DNA from: Clostridia bacterium
Lineage (GTDB): Bacteria; Bacillota; Clostridia; UBA1212; UBA1255
NCBI GenBank assembly: GCA_017963755.1
Contig: JAGCTF010000195.1
Coordinates: 1 to 32,516, forward strand
Direction of reading: 5' to 3'
DNA: 32,516 bases
Position 1 is the first letter of the stretch, and each line of letters begins with the position of its first letter. Positions 14,331-32,516 of this stretch are shown here, piece by piece. A program made the translations under genes and the position numbers. The notes below the pieces were generated by a model, which saw only the letters and a program-made list of their open reading frames with translations, was not told where the DNA came from and did no database searches.

Positions 14331-15224
14331 TTATACCGGGATATTGTGTACGTCCACCTGCGGGAACGGGCACTCTACGCCAAGATCCTTAAATCCGAGC
14401 AGAAGGTCGTGGTTCAGCGTCCTCGCGCCCGAGAAAATATTGGCCTCGTCAACTTCCCCGATAAATTTAAGTACTACGCCGCTGTCGGCCAGTTCGTTGA
14501 TGCCCAGATATACCGGTTTAACTTTGAAAATGTCCGGATGTGCGTCAAAAATGCTCTGAAGGAGATCCGGGATCTGGTTCTCGAGTTTTCTGAAATCGGT
14601 GCCGTAAGGAACGGCAATTTCGCATGCGGCGCGGGAAGGTTTATCGGAACGGTTAAGTATGTTCTTCATGGCGGAATTATTTACGATCTTAACGTTTCCG
14701 CCCGGATCGGTGATGCAGGTCGTGCGCAGTCCGATCGAAGTGACCGTGCCGCGGAATCCGCCGACTTCAACGATATCGCCTACGTTATACTGATTTTCAA
14801 ATACCATGAAAGCCCCGGTAACCATATCCGCGATCAGGCTCTCAGCCGAGAAACCCACGACGAGGGCAACGATTCCTACGCTTGCGACAATAGTAGATAC
14901 GTTCACTCCGATGATCGACAGTCCCCAGCAGATTATGACGATGGCGGCAACGTATTTGAGCACGCTCGATATTATCGACAGCACCGTACGCACTCTGTGA
15001 TTTTTGGGCTTCAGCAGGCTGAATACGAATACGAGCAGCGCTTCTACCGCCAGGACTCCGGCGATCATTATAATGAGCCTCACGAAAATGGAAAGGTTCA
15101 TCTTAACGTTACCGAAACCATTCCATCTTATAAGACCGGTAAGAAAAGCCACCGGAATCAATATCGCGATCAAAGCTCCGCAAACTATCAGACGGATAAT
15201 TCTTGCTTTCTTCTGTACAGGCAT
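14331..15224 (-). CDS. mscS: Small-conductance mechanosensitive channel family protein (MscS)
   Basis: A 297-residue MscS-family channel that would release solutes on hypo-osmotic shock. Four hydrophobic segments lie near 9-32, 44-71, 81-107 and 109-137. The last, with VGIVALVVGFSAESLIADMVTG, is the pore-lining helix, followed by the beta domain (YNVGDIVEVGGFRGTV, IGLRTT) and NNSAMKNILNRS at the start of the alpha/beta vestibule. The length is close to E. coli MscS (286), with one more N-terminal helix. The ATG is preceded by AAAGGAG at a good distance, and the gene has its own consensus promoter. Confidence 0.93.
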   Translation of the reverse strand: MPVQKKARIIRLIVCGALIAILIPVAFLTGLIRWNGFGNVKMNLSIFVRLIIMIAGVLAVEALLVFVFSLLKPKNHRVRTVLSIISSVLKYVAAIVIICWGLSIIGVNVSTIVASVGIVALVVGFSAESLIADMVTGAFMVFENQYNVGDIVEVGGFRGTVTSIGLRTTCITDPGGNVKIVNNSAMKNILNRSDKPSRAACEIAVPYGTDFRKLENQIPDLLQSIFDAHPDIFKVKPVYLGINELADSGVVLKFIGEVDEANIFSGARTLNHDLLLGFKDLGVECPFPQVDVHNIPV

Positions 15225-15264
15225 GCCAATCTACTCCTTTTTTATAGTCGCATTTTCTGTTGAA

Positions 15265-15293
15265 ATTATACAAAAACGTGATATACGTGTCAA
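15265..15293 (-). promoter_or_regulatory. Promoter of mscS
   Basis: Perfect TTGACA (15288-15293) and TATAAT (15265-15270) on the minus strand, 17 bases apart, about 40 bases before the mscS start. It probably also drives the downstream 399-residue protein. Confidence 0.88.
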
Positions 15294-15378
15294 ATATATT
15301 TTTTCGGTATACGCCGCACTCTTCCACATCACAAAAGTATTTTTGAGGCTCCGGAACAGTTCAGGCGGCAAAGGCTCT

Positions 15379-15402
15379 GATAATTGCAGGCGGATAATTG
15401 CA
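15379..15402 (+). repeat. Direct repeat GATAATTGCA x 2 upstream of vapBC promoter
   Basis: Two identical 10-mers at 15379-15388 and 15393-15402, spaced 14 bases apart, end one base before the -35 box of the vapBC promoter. This is a plausible binding site for the VapB or VapBC autorepressor, though such operators are often inverted rather than direct repeats. Confidence 0.5.
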
Positions 15403-15403
15403 C

Positions 15404-15432
15404 TTGACAAAATATATATTTTAATATATACT
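15404..15432 (+). promoter_or_regulatory. Promoter of vapBC
   Basis: TTGACA (15404-15409) and TATACT (15427-15432) are 17 bases apart. The spacer is an AT-only palindromic stretch (AATATATATT), a possible operator. The strong ribosome site AAAGGAGGT at 15456-15464 follows. Confidence 0.85.
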
Positions 15433-15472
15433 ATTTGCTGATCAATGGATCGTTTAAAGGAGGTGCCCGGTC

Positions 15473-15703
15473 ATGGAGACCGCTAAAATATTTGAAAATG
15501 GAAAAAGTCAAGCTGTTAGATTGCCAAAGAAATACCGTTTTTCCGGAGACGAAGTCTTCGTACAGAAATTAGGAAAGACGGTCATATTGATGCCTAAAGA
15601 TAAAGTCTGGGAGATATTCCTTGACGGCGTAAACAATTTTTCAGAAGATTATTTTTCCGAAGATCGAGGTTCTGCAATCGAAGTTGAGAGGGAAAACCTA
15701 TGA
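15473..15703 (+). CDS. vapB: Type II antitoxin, VapB/AbrB-like
   Basis: A 76-residue antitoxin with an N-terminal swapped-hairpin AbrB/MazE-type DNA-binding fold (KIFENGKSQAVRLPKKYRF, then VFVQKLGKTVILMPK) and an acidic C-terminal tail (FSEDYFSEDRG) of the kind that wraps the toxin. It neutralises VapC and, with it, should repress its own promoter. The ATG has a strong AAAGGAGGT nine bases upstream. Its stop overlaps the vapC start by four bases (ATGA), the standard arrangement in such pairs. It is one of the few plus-strand genes, which suits a mobile module inserted between mscS and guaA. Confidence 0.92.
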   Translation: METAKIFENGKSQAVRLPKKYRFSGDEVFVQKLGKTVILMPKDKVWEIFLDGVNNFSEDYFSEDRGSAIEVERENL

Positions 15704-16104
15704 CGTATATGCTTGACACGAATATCTGCATCTATGCTATAAAGAACAAGCCCCGGCAGGTTTTCGATTTAATTAAAGATAATATAGGCAACGGCCTTTG
15801 CATTTCTTCGATTACTTTAGCCGAACTTGAATATGGGGTCGAAAAAAGTATGTATCCCGAAAAAAACCGTTCTGCCCTGCTGCAGTTTCTGTCTATTCTG
15901 AACGTTTTGCCGTTTGACGACAACGCTGCTGTTGAATACGGTATTATTTGCGCCTCACTTCAACGCAAAGGCACTCCGATCGGAACAATGGATATGTTGA
16001 TCGCCGCACATGCTAAAGCAGCTGATCTGATCCTTGTAACTAACAACACGCGTGAGTTTGAACGTGTTGAGAACATTCGCCTGGAGAACTGGGCACAAGC
16101 ATAA
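15700..16104 (+). CDS. vapC: Type II toxin, PIN-domain ribonuclease VapC
   Basis: A 134-residue PIN-domain endoribonuclease. Acidic metal-binding residues are in place: Asp6 (YMLDTNICIYAIK), Glu42 (SSITLAELEYG) and Asp98 (IGTMDMLIAAHA), and the C-terminal TNNTREF motif follows. VapC toxins cut tRNA or rRNA and halt translation when the antitoxin is degraded. The toxin appears intact, without frameshift. Its stop codon overlaps the T-tract of the terminator that serves the convergent guaA gene. Confidence 0.94.
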   Translation: MTYMLDTNICIYAIKNKPRQVFDLIKDNIGNGLCISSITLAELEYGVEKSMYPEKNRSALLQFLSILNVLPFDDNAAVEYGIICASLQRKGTPIGTMDMLIAAHAKAADLILVTNNTREFERVENIRLENWAQA

Positions 16105-29782: not shown

Positions 29783-30664
29783 TCAGTCCAGGCTGTTCTT
29801 GTTTTTAGCTATCTCTTTATCCGTGATCAGCATTGCGGCGACCGCGATCGCACCGACGCCGCTTATAATGGCGACAAGGATCCAGTTGACTTCGGCAAAT
29901 CCGCCGGAATTCCAGTTACCCGTTTCGGCATCCTGCAGTTTGCTGAAAATGAGCACCACATCAGCGATTATTACGGCGGCGGCAATAAACAGCCCGATAA
30001 TCGTATAAACCGGTACGCGGTTATGTTTGCTGTTCACTCTCACCGGCGTAGGAAGACGGAAATCAAGAGAGTTTCCGAGGAAATACGCGACTGCAACGAG
30101 CACGATGGTCTCAGGCACCATATACGTCGCGTTATACGCAAACGAATATGCGAGCGCCGCTTTTGTAGGAATCGAAAGCCCCGCCCATACAGTCGCACCG
30201 GAAATGACGTGGCAGGCGTATCTCAGCAGGCATATCAGGAGCGATCCGCAGACAAGCTGCATAGCCTGGTTTGAGCCGAAACGTTTCCTGAACGATCCGC
30301 CGAATCCGATCACGGCAAAAGCGACAATATAATCGAGCATAATGACAGCGAGCACCGACTGCCATGAAGAAACGTAGCTAAGATTTTTAAGGCCGAAGAG
30401 CTGCTGGATGCCTCCGAACACCGTTGCCGATACGAGACCGTATCCGAGGCCGTGGCGGTACGCTATCAGCATCACCGGGAACATTGACGCCACTGTGACC
30501 GAACCGCCGTACGGAAGTTCAAAAAGTTTGAGGATGGAAAGTACGACTGCCATTGCCAGAAGCACGGCGCTTTCGACGAGACGCTGAGTAGTCGATACTT
30601 TTACGTTTCCCTGCTCGTGTTTAGCAGGTGAACCGAATTCTGATTCTGTTGCCAAATTTAACAT
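29783..30664 (-). CDS. thiT: Thiamine transporter ThiT-like (ECF substrate-binding protein), extended
   Basis: A 293-residue membrane protein whose first part matches the ThiT/YuaJ family: LFELPYGGSVTVASMFPVMLIAYRHG, followed by repeated hydrophobic helices. ThiT binds thiamine and works with the shared ECF energising module, not present here. Identity is backed by the TPP riboswitch directly upstream. Canonical ThiT is about 190 residues; this protein has a 30-residue polar N-terminus and a C-terminal extension with two further membrane segments (VYTIIGLFIAAAVIIADVVL and NWILVAIISGVGAIAVAAML). The ATG at 30662-30664 uses an AAAGGAG that forms the 3' arm of the switch hairpin. Confidence 0.88.
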   Translation of the reverse strand: MLNLATESEFGSPAKHEQGNVKVSTTQRLVESAVLLAMAVVLSILKLFELPYGGSVTVASMFPVMLIAYRHGLGYGLVSATVFGGIQQLFGLKNLSYVSSWQSVLAVIMLDYIVAFAVIGFGGSFRKRFGSNQAMQLVCGSLLICLLRYACHVISGATVWAGLSIPTKAALAYSFAYNATYMVPETIVLVAVAYFLGNSLDFRLPTPVRVNSKHNRVPVYTIIGLFIAAAVIIADVVLIFSKLQDAETGNWNSGGFAEVNWILVAIISGVGAIAVAAMLITDKEIAKNKNSLD

Positions 30665-30710
30665 AAAAAAACTCCTTTCTTCATAATCTTACCGTTTAAA
30701 AGAAGGAGTC
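30665..30710 (-). terminator. Expression platform of the TPP riboswitch (terminator that includes the ribosome site)
   Basis: ACTCCTT (30703-30709) pairs with AAGGAGT of the segment at 30671-30681, with CTT/AAG extension, followed by TTTTTTT just before the ATG. The same hairpin can stop transcription and hide the Shine-Dalgarno, giving an OFF switch with TPP. Confidence 0.8.
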
Positions 30711-30713
30711 AAA

Positions 30714-30803
30714 CCGCTTCCCTACGGTAGGATTACCTACACAGGTTCGAGGGGACAAAGCCGCGCGCCGCGGCTAATCTCAGCCTTAAAGCGCCCCCAG
30801 CGG
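30714..30803 (-). promoter_or_regulatory. TPP riboswitch upstream of thiT
   Basis: The minus strand has the THI-box pattern: closing stem CCGCT/AGCGG, GGGGGCGC, GGCTGAGATTAGCC (CUGAGA core), GTCCCC, GAACCTG, GGTAATCCTACC and CGTAGGGAA. A GC-rich variable stem GCCGCG/CGCGGC lies in the middle arm. All core elements are intact. Confidence 0.97.
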
Positions 30804-30811
30804 ACGTCAAT

Positions 30812-30840: not shown

Positions 30841-30877
30841 GTTCAAAAAAAACACAACAAATAAAAGCTTTATTAAT

Positions 30878-31028
30878 TTATGGGCAGGCATTAAATACAT
30901 AAAGATTCTTTGGCAATCTCTGCAAATCACCTGCTTTCTCAAAGCTTAAAACATACGGCATAAATGATTCGCCATAAAGAAAATCATCCGGATTTTTTTC
31001 GTTTGTCTTGTCTAAGAATGAAAGCCAT
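30878..31028 (-). pseudogene. Small frameshifted ORF with promoter and ribosome site
   Basis: An ATG at 31026-31028 has AGGAGG six bases before it and a good promoter, but its frame stops after 14 codons (TGA at 30984-30986). The neighbouring frame is open from there to TAA at 30878, with protein-like content (KNPDDFLYGESFMPYV, then LSFEKAGDLQRLPKNLYVF). Removing one base from a run of seven A's (CGAAAAAAATCC) joins the two into about 49 residues. It is thus a decayed small gene or one read by slippage. No homologue is recognised. The 648-base stretch between thiT and the last gene otherwise holds only regulatory signals and AT-rich sequence. Confidence 0.45.
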
Positions 31029-31067
31029 AATGTACCTCCTGAAAGCGAAGTGCTATAGAGTGCTATG

Positions 31068-31095
31068 ATTATAGCATATTAAAAGAAAAAGTCAA
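31068..31095 (-). promoter_or_regulatory. Promoter of the small frameshifted ORF
   Basis: TTGACT (31090-31095) and TATAAT (31068-31073) on the minus strand, 16 bases apart. The predicted leader contains ATAGCACT twice. Just upstream is the perfect inverted repeat TTCAAAA/TTTTGAA (31100-31116), a possible operator. Confidence 0.65.
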
Positions 31096-31207
31096 CAGTT
31101 TCAAAAAAATTTTGAAGAAATTGCTAACTTTTTTACGACGAATTTTGAACTTTTGCTACGAATATTTAATAATCATAAAAACAGTCTATGAACTGCTCCG
31201 GAAAATG

Positions 31208-31236
31208 TTGACATTAAGAACCATATCATCTATAAT
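31208..31236 (+). promoter_or_regulatory. Promoter of the secreted beta-trefoil protein gene
   Basis: Perfect TTGACA (31208-31213) and TATAAT (31231-31236), 17 bases apart, on the plus strand. It gives a leader of about 70 bases before the ATG. Confidence 0.88.
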
Positions 31237-31312
31237 GATTTACGAGATGCCGATAAAAACGTGGGTTTAAGCACTCAAATAACAGGGGGTCGCTTCACGG
31301 AGGTGTGTTCAA

Positions 31313-32516
31313 ATGAAAAACAGTTTATATAAAGTAACCATATTAATGTCTTTGCTTATGTTTGTTTTACGTTTTACACCTTTCGCAGCCAGGACGTATG
31401 ATTGCTGTTTTGAGACATCTGCTCAAGTCCTTTCTACTACAAATATAGAGTCGGGAACATTCTTGATTAAAAATCAATCAATTGGAAAATATTTGACGTT
31501 TGTTGCTGGATCGTTGGAATTAAGAGATTATGACGGCTCTGATAGTCAAAAATGGTACATTCGTCCTTTTGAAAGTGGTTATGTTATCGCAAGTTTGAAT
31601 GAAGCGACACCTACAATCGGAAATCAGTTTTATTGTTTATATCATTTTTCCAACTATACAGTTTCGGGTGCTATTGGCAGTAATCCAGACACAGACATTG
31701 GTATGTGTTGGACTATTACTCAGAGTTCAGGTTCGTTTATTTTGCAATGTATCAGAAACCCAAATTATTATTTAACAGCCTATTCATCGAGTAATATTAG
31801 TTTATCGTTTCCGATAAACAGCGGTATATACTGGAATTTAATAGAATGCTCAAACAAGTATATTCTTCCTACAATAGGAGATAGTTCTTTCTGTATTGAC
31901 AAATATTGCACAACAGGAACAGAAGGGTTAAAACAGCGAATGAACTGCTATTCTTACGCAGTTGGATTTTATGGCGATTATTCTCAAAACTATTATTCTT
32001 CTGAATATAGTTCTGTCCAACCCGGTTATATCTCAAACCGTCCATCCCCTTTATCTTCATATACTACAAACTGGGTACTTTATCCAGATGATATAAATAC
32101 TTTAACGCAACAATCAATAAACGCTTGGGAAAACTGGTTAATAGATTCTTTAAATTCAGATTTGAAGATATTATGTAACGATTCTGAAAATGATTATTCT
32201 AGGAGGGTTTATTCGTCATCTCTGTCCGAAGTAATGATGGGTCCGTGGAAAAAGGTTGCTTTAGTAATTGATCCGTATTACTTCTTGTATCGCGATGAAA
32301 ATAACTTACTTCACTTTCGTTATCCGGACTATCATTGGTACGTTGAAACTGAAGATGGTTACTGGACACATAAGTTAGGGCTAGAAGATGCTATGATTAC
32401 AGATTTTTCTGACAGTTTAATAACTGACCCGGAAAATTGTGATCGAGGAAACTATTCAGTTTTCTGCGGTTACTATAAGATTAAAATTGATTGTATTCCA
32501 GAATATAACAATCCCT
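31313..32516 (+). CDS. Secreted protein with ricin-type beta-trefoil region, incomplete at window edge
   Basis: An ATG at 31313-31315 with GGAGG (31299-31303) opens a frame of at least 401 codons that runs off the right edge. Residues 1-26 look like a signal peptide (basic MKNSLYK, hydrophobic core, FAA at the end). Residues about 48-180 have beta-trefoil-like repeats (GTFLIKNQSIGKYLTF, SQKWYI, NPNYYLTAY), as in carbohydrate-binding ricin domains. The region from about 208 shows NCYSYAVGFYGD and YHWYVETEDGYWTHKLG, then DRGNYSVFCGYY; this Cys...His layout recalls uncharacterised exported Firmicutes proteins with NCYAYA and HWYRQD-type motifs, possibly cysteine hydrolases, which is inference. 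Codon use is much more AT-rich than in the neighbouring operons, suggesting transfer. Confidence 0.85.
   Translation, partial: MKNSLYKVTILMSLLMFVLRFTPFAARTYDCCFETSAQVLSTTNIESGTFLIKNQSIGKYLTFVAGSLELRDYDGSDSQKWYIRPFESGYVIASLNEATPTIGNQFYCLYHFSNYTVSGAIGSNPDTDIGMCWTITQSSGSFILQCIRNPNYYLTAYSSSNISLSFPINSGIYWNLIECSNKYILPTIGDSSFCIDKYCTTGTEGLKQRMNCYSYAVGFYGDYSQNYYSSEYSSVQPGYISNRPSPLSSYTTNWVLYPDDINTLTQQSINAWENWLIDSLNSDLKILCNDSENDYSRRVYSSSLSEVMMGPWKKVALVIDPYYFLYRDENNLLHFRYPDYHWYVETEDGYWTHKLGLEDAMITDFSDSLITDPENCDRGNYSVFCGYYKIKIDCIPEYNNP

What the first reader, a model, noticed from the sequence alone, without database searches (positions are those of the whole stretch)
30841..32516. AT-rich right end with a secreted beta-trefoil/Cys-His protein
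Base composition falls sharply after thiT, and the last gene has AT-rich codons, a signal peptide, ricin-type repeats and an unusual NCYSYA...HWYVETEDGYW layout. This suggests a horizontally acquired exported effector or surface enzyme; it is incomplete here.
Basis: partly seen in the sequence, partly recalled or inferred. Interest (0 to 1): 0.5.

Follow-up and report, generated by a model that had tools for sequence, protein, structure and literature searches.

The report
Secreted cysteine-histidine enzyme, probable antibacterial toxin
The AT-rich gene cut off at the end of this contig encodes a secreted enzyme-like protein from a widespread, apparently undescribed family that bacteria seem to use against rivals, and relatives often carry a small protective protein next door, so it is probably a new variety of toxin and immunity pair.

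Summary
The last gene (31313-32515, + strand, cut by the contig end) is 34.3% GC; none of 206 clean 1-kb windows sampled elsewhere in the genome is that low (mean 51.7%). It encodes a signal peptide, one degenerate ricin-type trefoil and a Cys/His domain (Cys212, His341, His353). That domain belongs to a family seen here in 15 phylum-level groups (one archaeal MAG included) and in phages, without a Pfam or NCBIfam model of its own; 13 of 74 members weakly match DUF7689. A confident domain model (pLDDT 94.9) has papain-like topology; its nearest solved structures are papain-fold enzymes, but only at Z 6.3 or less, and it shows no sequence link to NlpC/P60. In some relatives the domain is C-terminal cargo of Rhs or TcdB-like proteins or lies beside a VgrG gene; others look Sec-secreted. 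The next gene encodes an apparently exported protein in 34 of 63 loci. Two partner families recur: one related to beta-lactamase inhibitory protein and BamE, and one ('FSGRPNP') also found fused to the enzyme. Best reading: an envelope-targeting effector with immunity, perhaps a peptidoglycan amidase (substrate inferred). The window's own partner lies beyond the contig; partners of its closest relatives match neither family.

The parts
31313..32515 (+). Gene for the secreted trefoil plus Cys/His-domain protein, first 401 aa; 3' end cut by the contig end
   Evidence: the domain is found once in the genome
31208..31236 (+). Perfect sigma-70 consensus TTGACA-17-TATAAT, likely promoter of the gene
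   Evidence: 12 of 12 matches; 5 promoter-like sites in the region against a mean of 2.0 in shuffles
31299..31303 (+). GGAGG ribosome-binding site, 9 nt before the ATG
   Evidence: read directly from the sequence
31313..31393 (+). Sec-type signal peptide, about aa 1-27
   Evidence: read from the translation: basic start, hydrophobic core; no signal-peptide predictor was run
31442..31852 (+). Degenerate ricin-type beta-trefoil, about aa 44-180
   Evidence: PF14200, 23.2 bits, below cut-off 25.6; trefoil lectins are the top matches, Z 7.4 at best
31895..32506 (+). Cys/His domain, aa 195-398, predicted papain-like catalytic domain
31946..31948 (+). Codon of Cys212, predicted nucleophile at the start of a helix
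32333..32335 (+). Codon of His341 (DYHWY), predicted catalytic base on a strand
32369..32371 (+). Codon of His353 (WTHK), possible third catalytic residue on the next strand
   Evidence: 70 of 74 His; replaced in several wider relatives
30841..32516 (.). AT-rich end of the contig

Best explanation
The gene encodes a Sec-secreted effector of an undescribed Cys/His domain family. The trefoil probably binds a surface glycan; the C-terminal domain is a papain-like thiol hydrolase (Cys212 nucleophile, His341 base, His353 or another polar residue as third member) that cleaves an amide bond in the envelope of competing bacteria, most likely peptidoglycan. A small membrane-anchored or exported protein encoded directly downstream in relatives, and presumably just past this contig's end, inhibits the enzyme outside the producer's membrane. 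Shown by computation: the family, residue conservation, a high-confidence domain model, toxin-cargo architectures in some relatives, and a downstream neighbour that is often export-like and homologous across distant members. Inferred: catalysis, toxicity, immunity, the peptidoglycan substrate, and the presence of a partner in this genome.
For: Family: 85 of 121 pattern stretches in the genome collection encode relatives, best 80 kept as 79 loci. Conservation over 74 members: N 73, C 74, D-Y-H-x-Y 74, W 73, H 70, K 73. Domain model pLDDT 94.9, pTM 0.89, Cys at a helix start, His on a strand, second His on the next strand. Top VIA rows are papain-fold enzymes: staphopain Z 6.3, PeiR 5.8, MepS 5.4, Tae1 4.8. 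Toxin architectures: RHS repeats above cut-off in 6 of the 11 carriers scanned (L072, L081, L091, L074, L085, L055), chosen partly for their length; L072 also has a WXG100 match below cut-off (22.2 of 27.3 bits) and L074 TcdB-type domains; a VgrG-like gene follows L092. In L085 and L071 the domain begins shortly after a DPxGL end of the Rhs core (motif recalled). Partner: a + ORF starting within -50..+80 of the stop has a hydrophobic N terminus in 34 of 63 non-redundant loci, against 29 of 212 other ORFs of 200 aa or more in the same loci (Fisher 3.6e-10; among genes that have such an ORF, 34 of 51 against 29 of 103, 5.3e-6). 29 of 51 partners fall in homologous clusters, against 4 of 54 upstream genes and 0 of 57 second-downstream genes. 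Partner type (BLIP-like or FSGRPNP) changes once on the domain tree over 35 rows. The BLIP-like profile matches beta-lactamase inhibitory protein (E 9.3e-6) and a T6SS immunity protein, BtiO (E 0.0058).
Against: VIA Z is 6.3 at most and Foldseek finds no significant solved match (best E 0.55). Profile comparison with NlpC/P60 gives probability 0.1. Partners of the window's nearest relatives (L044/L052, L057/L060, L078) do not align with either partner family beyond the signal peptide. 12 of 63 loci have no downstream ORF by the rule used and 17 of 51 such ORFs lack a hydrophobic N terminus; three FSGRPNP partners look cytoplasmic (L042, L058, L067). The two partner types largely follow the Bacillota/other split of the tree, so the single change may partly reflect taxonomy. 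The BLIP match is a sum over BLIP's two repeats; each stretch alone is weak (0.043 and 6.1). A Hodarchaeota MAG and a Hokovirus model carry the domain, settings where peptidoglycan is not the obvious substrate. His353 is replaced in several wider relatives. No activity was measured.
Confidence: 0.6

Rival explanations
1. Same effector-immunity logic, but the domain is a thiol protease, deamidase or acyl hydrolase acting on envelope proteins or lipids rather than on peptidoglycan.
For: Papain-like folds serve many substrates; a Salmonella T6SS toxin with a permuted NlpC/P60 core, Tox-Act1, is a phospholipase (PMC12994826, abstract and passages seen). Best fold neighbours include proteases such as staphopain as well as cell-wall amidases. 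An archaeal MAG and a Hokovirus model carry the domain.
Against: Carbohydrate-binding modules in some members (ricin, CBM96) and exported partners fit a wall target; Tox-Act1's core is permuted, whereas here Cys precedes His.
Confidence: 0.25
2. The secreted members are nutritional or housekeeping hydrolases and the downstream gene is an inhibitor or chaperone that tames the enzyme, with no role in competition.
For: Window-clade proteins carry glycan-binding modules (CBM96, ricin), and a phage relative has a weak, below-cut-off trypsin-like match in front (P0003).
Against: The same domain is carried by Rhs and TcdB-like proteins and lies next to a VgrG-like gene, with homologous partners in secreted and Rhs members.
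Confidence: 0.15
3. A host-directed adhesin or effector of a gut or rumen bacterium; the trefoil binds host mucus glycans and the Cys/His domain acts on host protein.
For: Trefoil lectin and secretion; the family also occurs in a TcdB-like protein of a Lachnospiraceae MAG and in Xenorhabdus.
Against: An adjacent exported partner, seen in 34 of 63 loci, is not expected for a host-directed enzyme.
Confidence: 0.06
4. The gene is foreign contamination mis-binned onto this contig, so nothing follows about this genome.
For: The gene's GC is outside the sampled range of the genome and lies at a contig end.
Against: It is on one contig with thiT (name recalled), a TPP riboswitch and an alaS-like ORF, and a same-genus genome (L004/L052) carries a 38% identical AT-rich homologue.
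Confidence: 0.04

Closest known systems
Tae1/Tse1 T6SS peptidoglycan amidase with Tsi1 immunity
   Same: Similar predicted fold and Cys-before-His order; VIA Z 4.8 over about 115 residues; cognate immunity (recalled)
   Different: No detectable sequence similarity to any solved chain (profile search 0 hits at E 10); different carriers and partner families
NlpC/P60 family (PF00877), e.g. MepS/Spr
   Same: Predicted Cys-His-His order on helix, strand, strand, a triad type that NlpC/P60 enzymes use (PMC10318531, passages seen); VIA Z about 5
   Different: PF00877 is not among the families matched by any of 74 members at E 0.1; hhalign probability 0.1
Tox-PL1 and other papain-like toxin domains of Zhang et al. 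2012 (PMC3482391, passages seen)
   Same: Papain-like toxin domain on Rhs or WXG carriers; Tox-PL1 has an NC-H-DxQ signature
   Different: No Tox-PL model among the 16 Pfam families matched by any of 74 members; the DYHWYRQ and WSHKPG blocks are not in the signature given for Tox-PL1
DUF7689 (PF24738)
   Same: Distant sequence similarity over the Cys-to-His core: 13 of 74 members at E 0.1 or better, best 4.8e-6
   Different: The window protein does not match and 61 of 74 members do not; where bit scores were shown they lie below the 22.6-bit cut-off. No paper in the library holds the word DUF7689
Beta-lactamase inhibitory protein, BamE, DUF3862 and BtiO (relatives of one partner family)
   Same: Shared pattern around GMTxxEV...G; profile hits BLIP 9.3e-6 and BtiO 0.0058; Pfam BamE 6 of 22, DUF3862 7 of 22 members
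   Different: These partners sit beside a Cys/His effector and are mostly lipoprotein-like or membrane-anchored; not recognised beside the window clade

Membership tests
Papain-like cysteine hydrolase superfamily | Nucleophile Cys at the N terminus of a helix, followed in sequence by His on a beta-strand and a polar residue on the next strand | tested here: met
   Domain model: Cys26 starts H26-31, His101 in E100-105, His113 in E111-114 (numbering of L015). Interatomic distances could not be measured
Papain-like cysteine hydrolase superfamily | Fold similarity to a solved member | tested here: inconclusive
   Nearly all of the 50 rows shown are papain-fold enzymes by title or by my recall, but Z is 6.3 or less with rmsd 3.5-5.5; Foldseek E 0.55 at best
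Papain-like cysteine hydrolase superfamily | Thiol hydrolase activity | not testable with these tools
   needs protein
NlpC/P60 (PF00877) | Sequence match to the family | tested here: not met
   Not among the families matched by any of 74 members at E 0.1; hhalign probability 0.1 against 16 NlpC/P60 domains of related genomes
DUF7689 (PF24738) | Match above the 22.6-bit cut-off | tested here: inconclusive
   13 of 74 members match at E 0.1, best E 4.8e-6, whose bit score is not shown; window no match; shown scores 14.3-18.8 bits
Tox-PL type papain-like toxin domains | Match to a Pfam Tox-PL model | tested here: not met
   None among the 16 families matched by any of 74 members at E 0.1
Ricin-type lectin (PF14200) | Score above the curated cut-off of 25.6 bits | tested here: not met
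   23.2 bits in the window; 26.3 in same-genus relative P0007
Ricin-type lectin (PF14200) | Beta-trefoil fold | tested here: inconclusive
   Best Z 7.4 to a trefoil lectin, but much of the trefoil has pLDDT under 50
Polymorphic toxin effector | Domain used as C-terminal cargo of Rhs/WXG/Tc-type carriers | tested here: met
   RHS repeats in 6 of 11 carriers scanned, junctions; WXG100 in L072 below cut-off. Met for the family; the window member itself has no such carrier
Polymorphic toxin effector | Cognate immunity gene adjacent | tested here: inconclusive
   Statistically strong in relatives; the window's own next gene is beyond the contig and was not found elsewhere in the genome
Polymorphic toxin effector | Toxic, and neutralised by the partner | not testable with these tools
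   needs an experiment
BLIP/BamE relatives (partner) | Sequence match of the partner group | tested here: met
   Profile of 22 partners (17 of the 18 in the cluster, plus 5 added by hhalign): BLIP E 9.3e-6 over two weak stretches; Pfam BamE 6 of 22, best 6.2e-6, DUF3862 7 of 22
BLIP/BamE relatives (partner) | Match of the partners in the window's own clade | tested here: not met
   hhalign against the BLIP-like group: L044/52 2.7%, L057/60 46% (signal-peptide region only), L078 3.4%

The most novel reading that the evidence does not exclude
A cross-phylum, apparently undescribed effector domain family carried by Sec-type, WXG100-Rhs, Rhs, TcdB-like and VgrG-linked proteins, whose immunity proteins in one large branch are relatives of BLIP and BamE. 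If so, beta-lactamase inhibitory proteins may descend from immunity proteins of a cell-envelope toxin arms race, and the FSGRPNP protein is a second inhibitor family that exists both as a separate gene and as a built-in N-terminal inhibitor of the enzyme.
Probability: 0.35. Interest if true: 0.75.

Novelty: new variant of a known kind. Interest (0 to 1): 0.6.

Why it matters
It would add a widespread toxin domain that has no Pfam or NCBIfam model of its own, give many unnamed genes of gut, rumen, soil and water bacteria a testable role, supply two inhibitor families, and offer a possible origin for BLIP-type inhibitors. Domain boundaries, candidate catalytic residues and cognate partners are defined well enough to test in laboratory strains.

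Tried and rejected
The window protein alone gave nothing in PDB sequences, NCBIfam and one viral-contig scan, a chance-level PHROGs hit, and one distant hit each in plasmids and phages. The first fold search was filled by trefoil lectins and said nothing about the Cys/His part, so the domain was modelled alone. NlpC/P60 membership was rejected. DUF7689 as the family name was not accepted. A scan for DUF7689 in 38 related genomes found none, but its 14 control genomes rang in none either, so it shows nothing. The rest of the gene and the partner were sought in the same genome with relatives' sequences: only hits at E 0.05 and 0.2. An unfiltered GC table contained all-N contigs and was redone. 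The first partner control (32 of 248) may have held antisense shadow ORFs; it was redone with one set of non-overlapping ORFs on both strands (29 of 212) and the conclusion held. Placing the window clade's partners in the two partner families failed; in that of the 40 upstream control genes tried (of 54) also scored over 20% against the BLIP-like group (maximum 96.7) and none against FSGRPNP; which genes they are was not looked up (one may be the lipoprotein gene that lies upstream of L014). Paper searches for DUF7689, for the motifs, for NlpC/Rhs/BLIP combinations and for BtiO found no description of the family; some searches listed related papers, of which I looked at passages of PMC3482391, PMC10318531 and PMC12994826 only, the rest as listings. 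Only open PubMed Central papers were searched. An idea linking Anaeroplasma's lytic habit (recalled) to this enzyme was dropped: no paper, and the gene after the domain in L031 looks FtsW-like, by recall.

Rows dropped before counts: L064, L089 and L094 (no usable ORF) and L023, L026, L077, L083, L086 (no Cys part) were left out of the 75-locus alignment; A5 holds 73 of the 75 loci plus the window (near-duplicates L043 and L060 left out), A4 65 plus the window. Statistics use 64 representatives under 70% identity, 63 testable. Clustering left out 12 loci judged by eye to have no partner; the cluster comparison with controls dropped none of the 51.

Full report
Observation. The window is a whole contig of a 2.66-Mb genome in 272 contigs. 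Its last gene, 31313-32515 (+), runs off the end. Composition drops from 0.52 over 1-30664 to 0.34 in the gene. In 206 clean 1-kb windows from 16 other contigs of the same genome the mean is 0.517 and the minimum 0.392, so the gene is outside the sampled range. It has a perfect sigma-70 consensus 76 nt upstream of the ATG and a GGAGG site, so it looks like an independently expressed gene. On the other strand upstream lie a transporter ORF (thiT, by recall) and a TPP riboswitch.

Who has it. The same-genus genome G004 carries a 967-aa relative, 38% identical, while the five other same-genus genomes searched showed no match; some of these are incomplete. A profile found the domain or wider relatives in 16 of 391 genomes of the class, and a narrower profile in 2 of 398 drawn from the phylum, own genome included in both. 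A pattern-plus-tblastn scan of the genome collection gave 85 confirmed relatives, 79 distinct loci kept. The tree tool lists 15 phylum-level groups, one archaeal; many records are MAGs. The window groups with L057, L044, L052 and L078 (SH-aLRT 95, quick tree without bootstraps). A Bifidobacterium copy pairs with a Roseburia copy (99), one sign of transfer. Phage, plasmid and other viral relatives exist; three viral protein models match the domain model, one named Hokovirus and two without a name.

The domain. Across 74 members: Asn-Cys 73 and 74, Pro-Gly 70 and 72, Asp-Tyr-His 74, Asp-Gly 72 and 68, Trp 73, His 70, Lys 73, Gly 73. DYH[WF]Y was the search pattern, so that block is largely by construction; the script also required a C-x-x-aromatic motif. 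In the pattern-free set the members that reach the Cys region have N-C and all shown keep the His, but the third His varies, so its catalytic role is uncertain. The domain alone is modelled at pLDDT 94.9 with the Cys at a helix start and both His on successive strands. The nearest solved structures are papain-like enzymes but at low Z; Foldseek has no significant PDB hit. NCBIfam has no model for it and Pfam only the weak DUF7689 signal. I call it papain-like with about 85% confidence and do not file it in NlpC/P60.

What it is for. Of 11 carriers scanned, chosen partly for length, 6 have RHS repeats above cut-off; one of these also has a WXG100 match below cut-off (L072) and one TcdB-type domains (L074). 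In L085 and L071 the domain begins shortly after a DPxGL Rhs core end (motif recalled). The gene after L092 has the Pfam domains of a VgrG (name recalled). These are places of polymorphic toxin cargo (Zhang et al. 2012, PMC3482391, passages seen). Others look Sec-secreted by N-terminal hydropathy, some with ricin or CBM96 modules; a phage member has a weak trypsin-like match.

The partner. In 34 of 63 testable non-redundant loci the longest ORF that starts within -50 to +80 bases of the stop, same strand, has a hydrophobic N terminus, against 29 of 212 other non-overlapping ORFs of 200 aa or more in the same loci (Fisher 3.6e-10), or 34 of 51 against 29 of 103 where such an ORF exists (5.3e-6). 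Partners are homologous far more often than other neighbours: 29 of 51 in clusters against 4 of 54 upstream and 0 of 57 second-downstream genes. Two families dominate. One (18 proteins, mostly lipoprotein-like or membrane-anchored; L015 and L082 lack a hydrophobic start) serves both secreted and Rhs-borne enzymes; a profile of 17 of them plus 5 more matches beta-lactamase inhibitory protein (9.3e-6, two weak stretches added), BtiO (0.0058) and, weakly, BamE. The other (FSGRPNP, 10 separate genes) is also the N-terminal part of five enzymes, for example in Rhizobium and Streptomyces, which suits a built-in inhibitor; L090 has it both fused and in a lipoprotein ORF after it. Over 35 rows the partner type changes once on the enzyme tree, which fits joint inheritance, though the types also follow the Bacillota/other split. 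An exported partner suggests that the enzyme acts outside the producer's membrane.

Limits. The window gene's own partner is beyond the contig and was not found elsewhere. Its nearest relatives (three independent cases: L057/L060, L044/L052, L078) do have a next gene with a hydrophobic or lipobox-like start, but those proteins are not visibly homologous to the two families. Some FSGRPNP partners lack an export signal. Peptidoglycan as substrate rests on analogy: papain-like wall amidases, exported partners, carbohydrate-binding modules. My step-wise confidence: family real 0.99, papain-like fold 0.85, effector-immunity pair 0.8, acts outside the cytoplasm 0.65, peptidoglycan 0.45.

Novelty. 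The kind (effector with immunity) is known; I found no description of this domain or of its pairing with BLIP-like proteins in the searches made, which cover open PubMed Central texts only, and most papers listed there were seen as listings.

Noticed in passing
window 30702-30808 (-) and 29783-30664 (-): TPP riboswitch (66.7 bits) in front of a thiT-like ORF (name recalled), an ordinary thiamine-uptake unit bordering the AT-rich end.
   Followed up: yes
window 30878-31078 (-): A 66-codon stretch without stop whose translation looks protein-like but which has no start codon near its beginning: possibly the end of a decayed AT-rich gene.
   Followed up: no
window 15001-16000: The other marked GC dip of the contig (0.407) holds a 134-aa ORF at 15700-16104 that looks like a VapC-type PIN toxin (by recall).
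   Followed up: no
L072, L081, L091 (Rhs carriers): Between the Rhs part and the Cys/His domain lies a hydrophobic segment ending in a lipobox-like LTGC or LTAC, as if the released cargo could be exported or anchored; unexplained.
   Followed up: partly
L007:4380-5210, L073, L075, L079, L090: The FSGRPNP partner is fused in front of the Cys/His domain, while elsewhere it is a separate downstream gene.
   Followed up: yes
L008:4021-6219: Anaeroplasmataceae phage protein with a weak (below cut-off) trypsin-like match in front of the Cys/His domain, followed by a gene whose product is related to the partner of L034.
   Followed up: partly
L028:4410-5786, after the Cys/His domain: The enzyme's own C terminus carries an ISKGMTYSAITEEIGLP stretch like that of the BLIP-like partners, as if a partner domain were fused behind the enzyme (seen by eye).
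   Followed up: no
L088:4821-5934: Two Cys/His-domain ORFs in tandem in a Micavibrio MAG.
   Followed up: no
L010:5649-6192: In one viral contig the domain is split over two overlapping frames; another contig (L009 and L093) has it in one frame.
   Followed up: no
   Followed up: no
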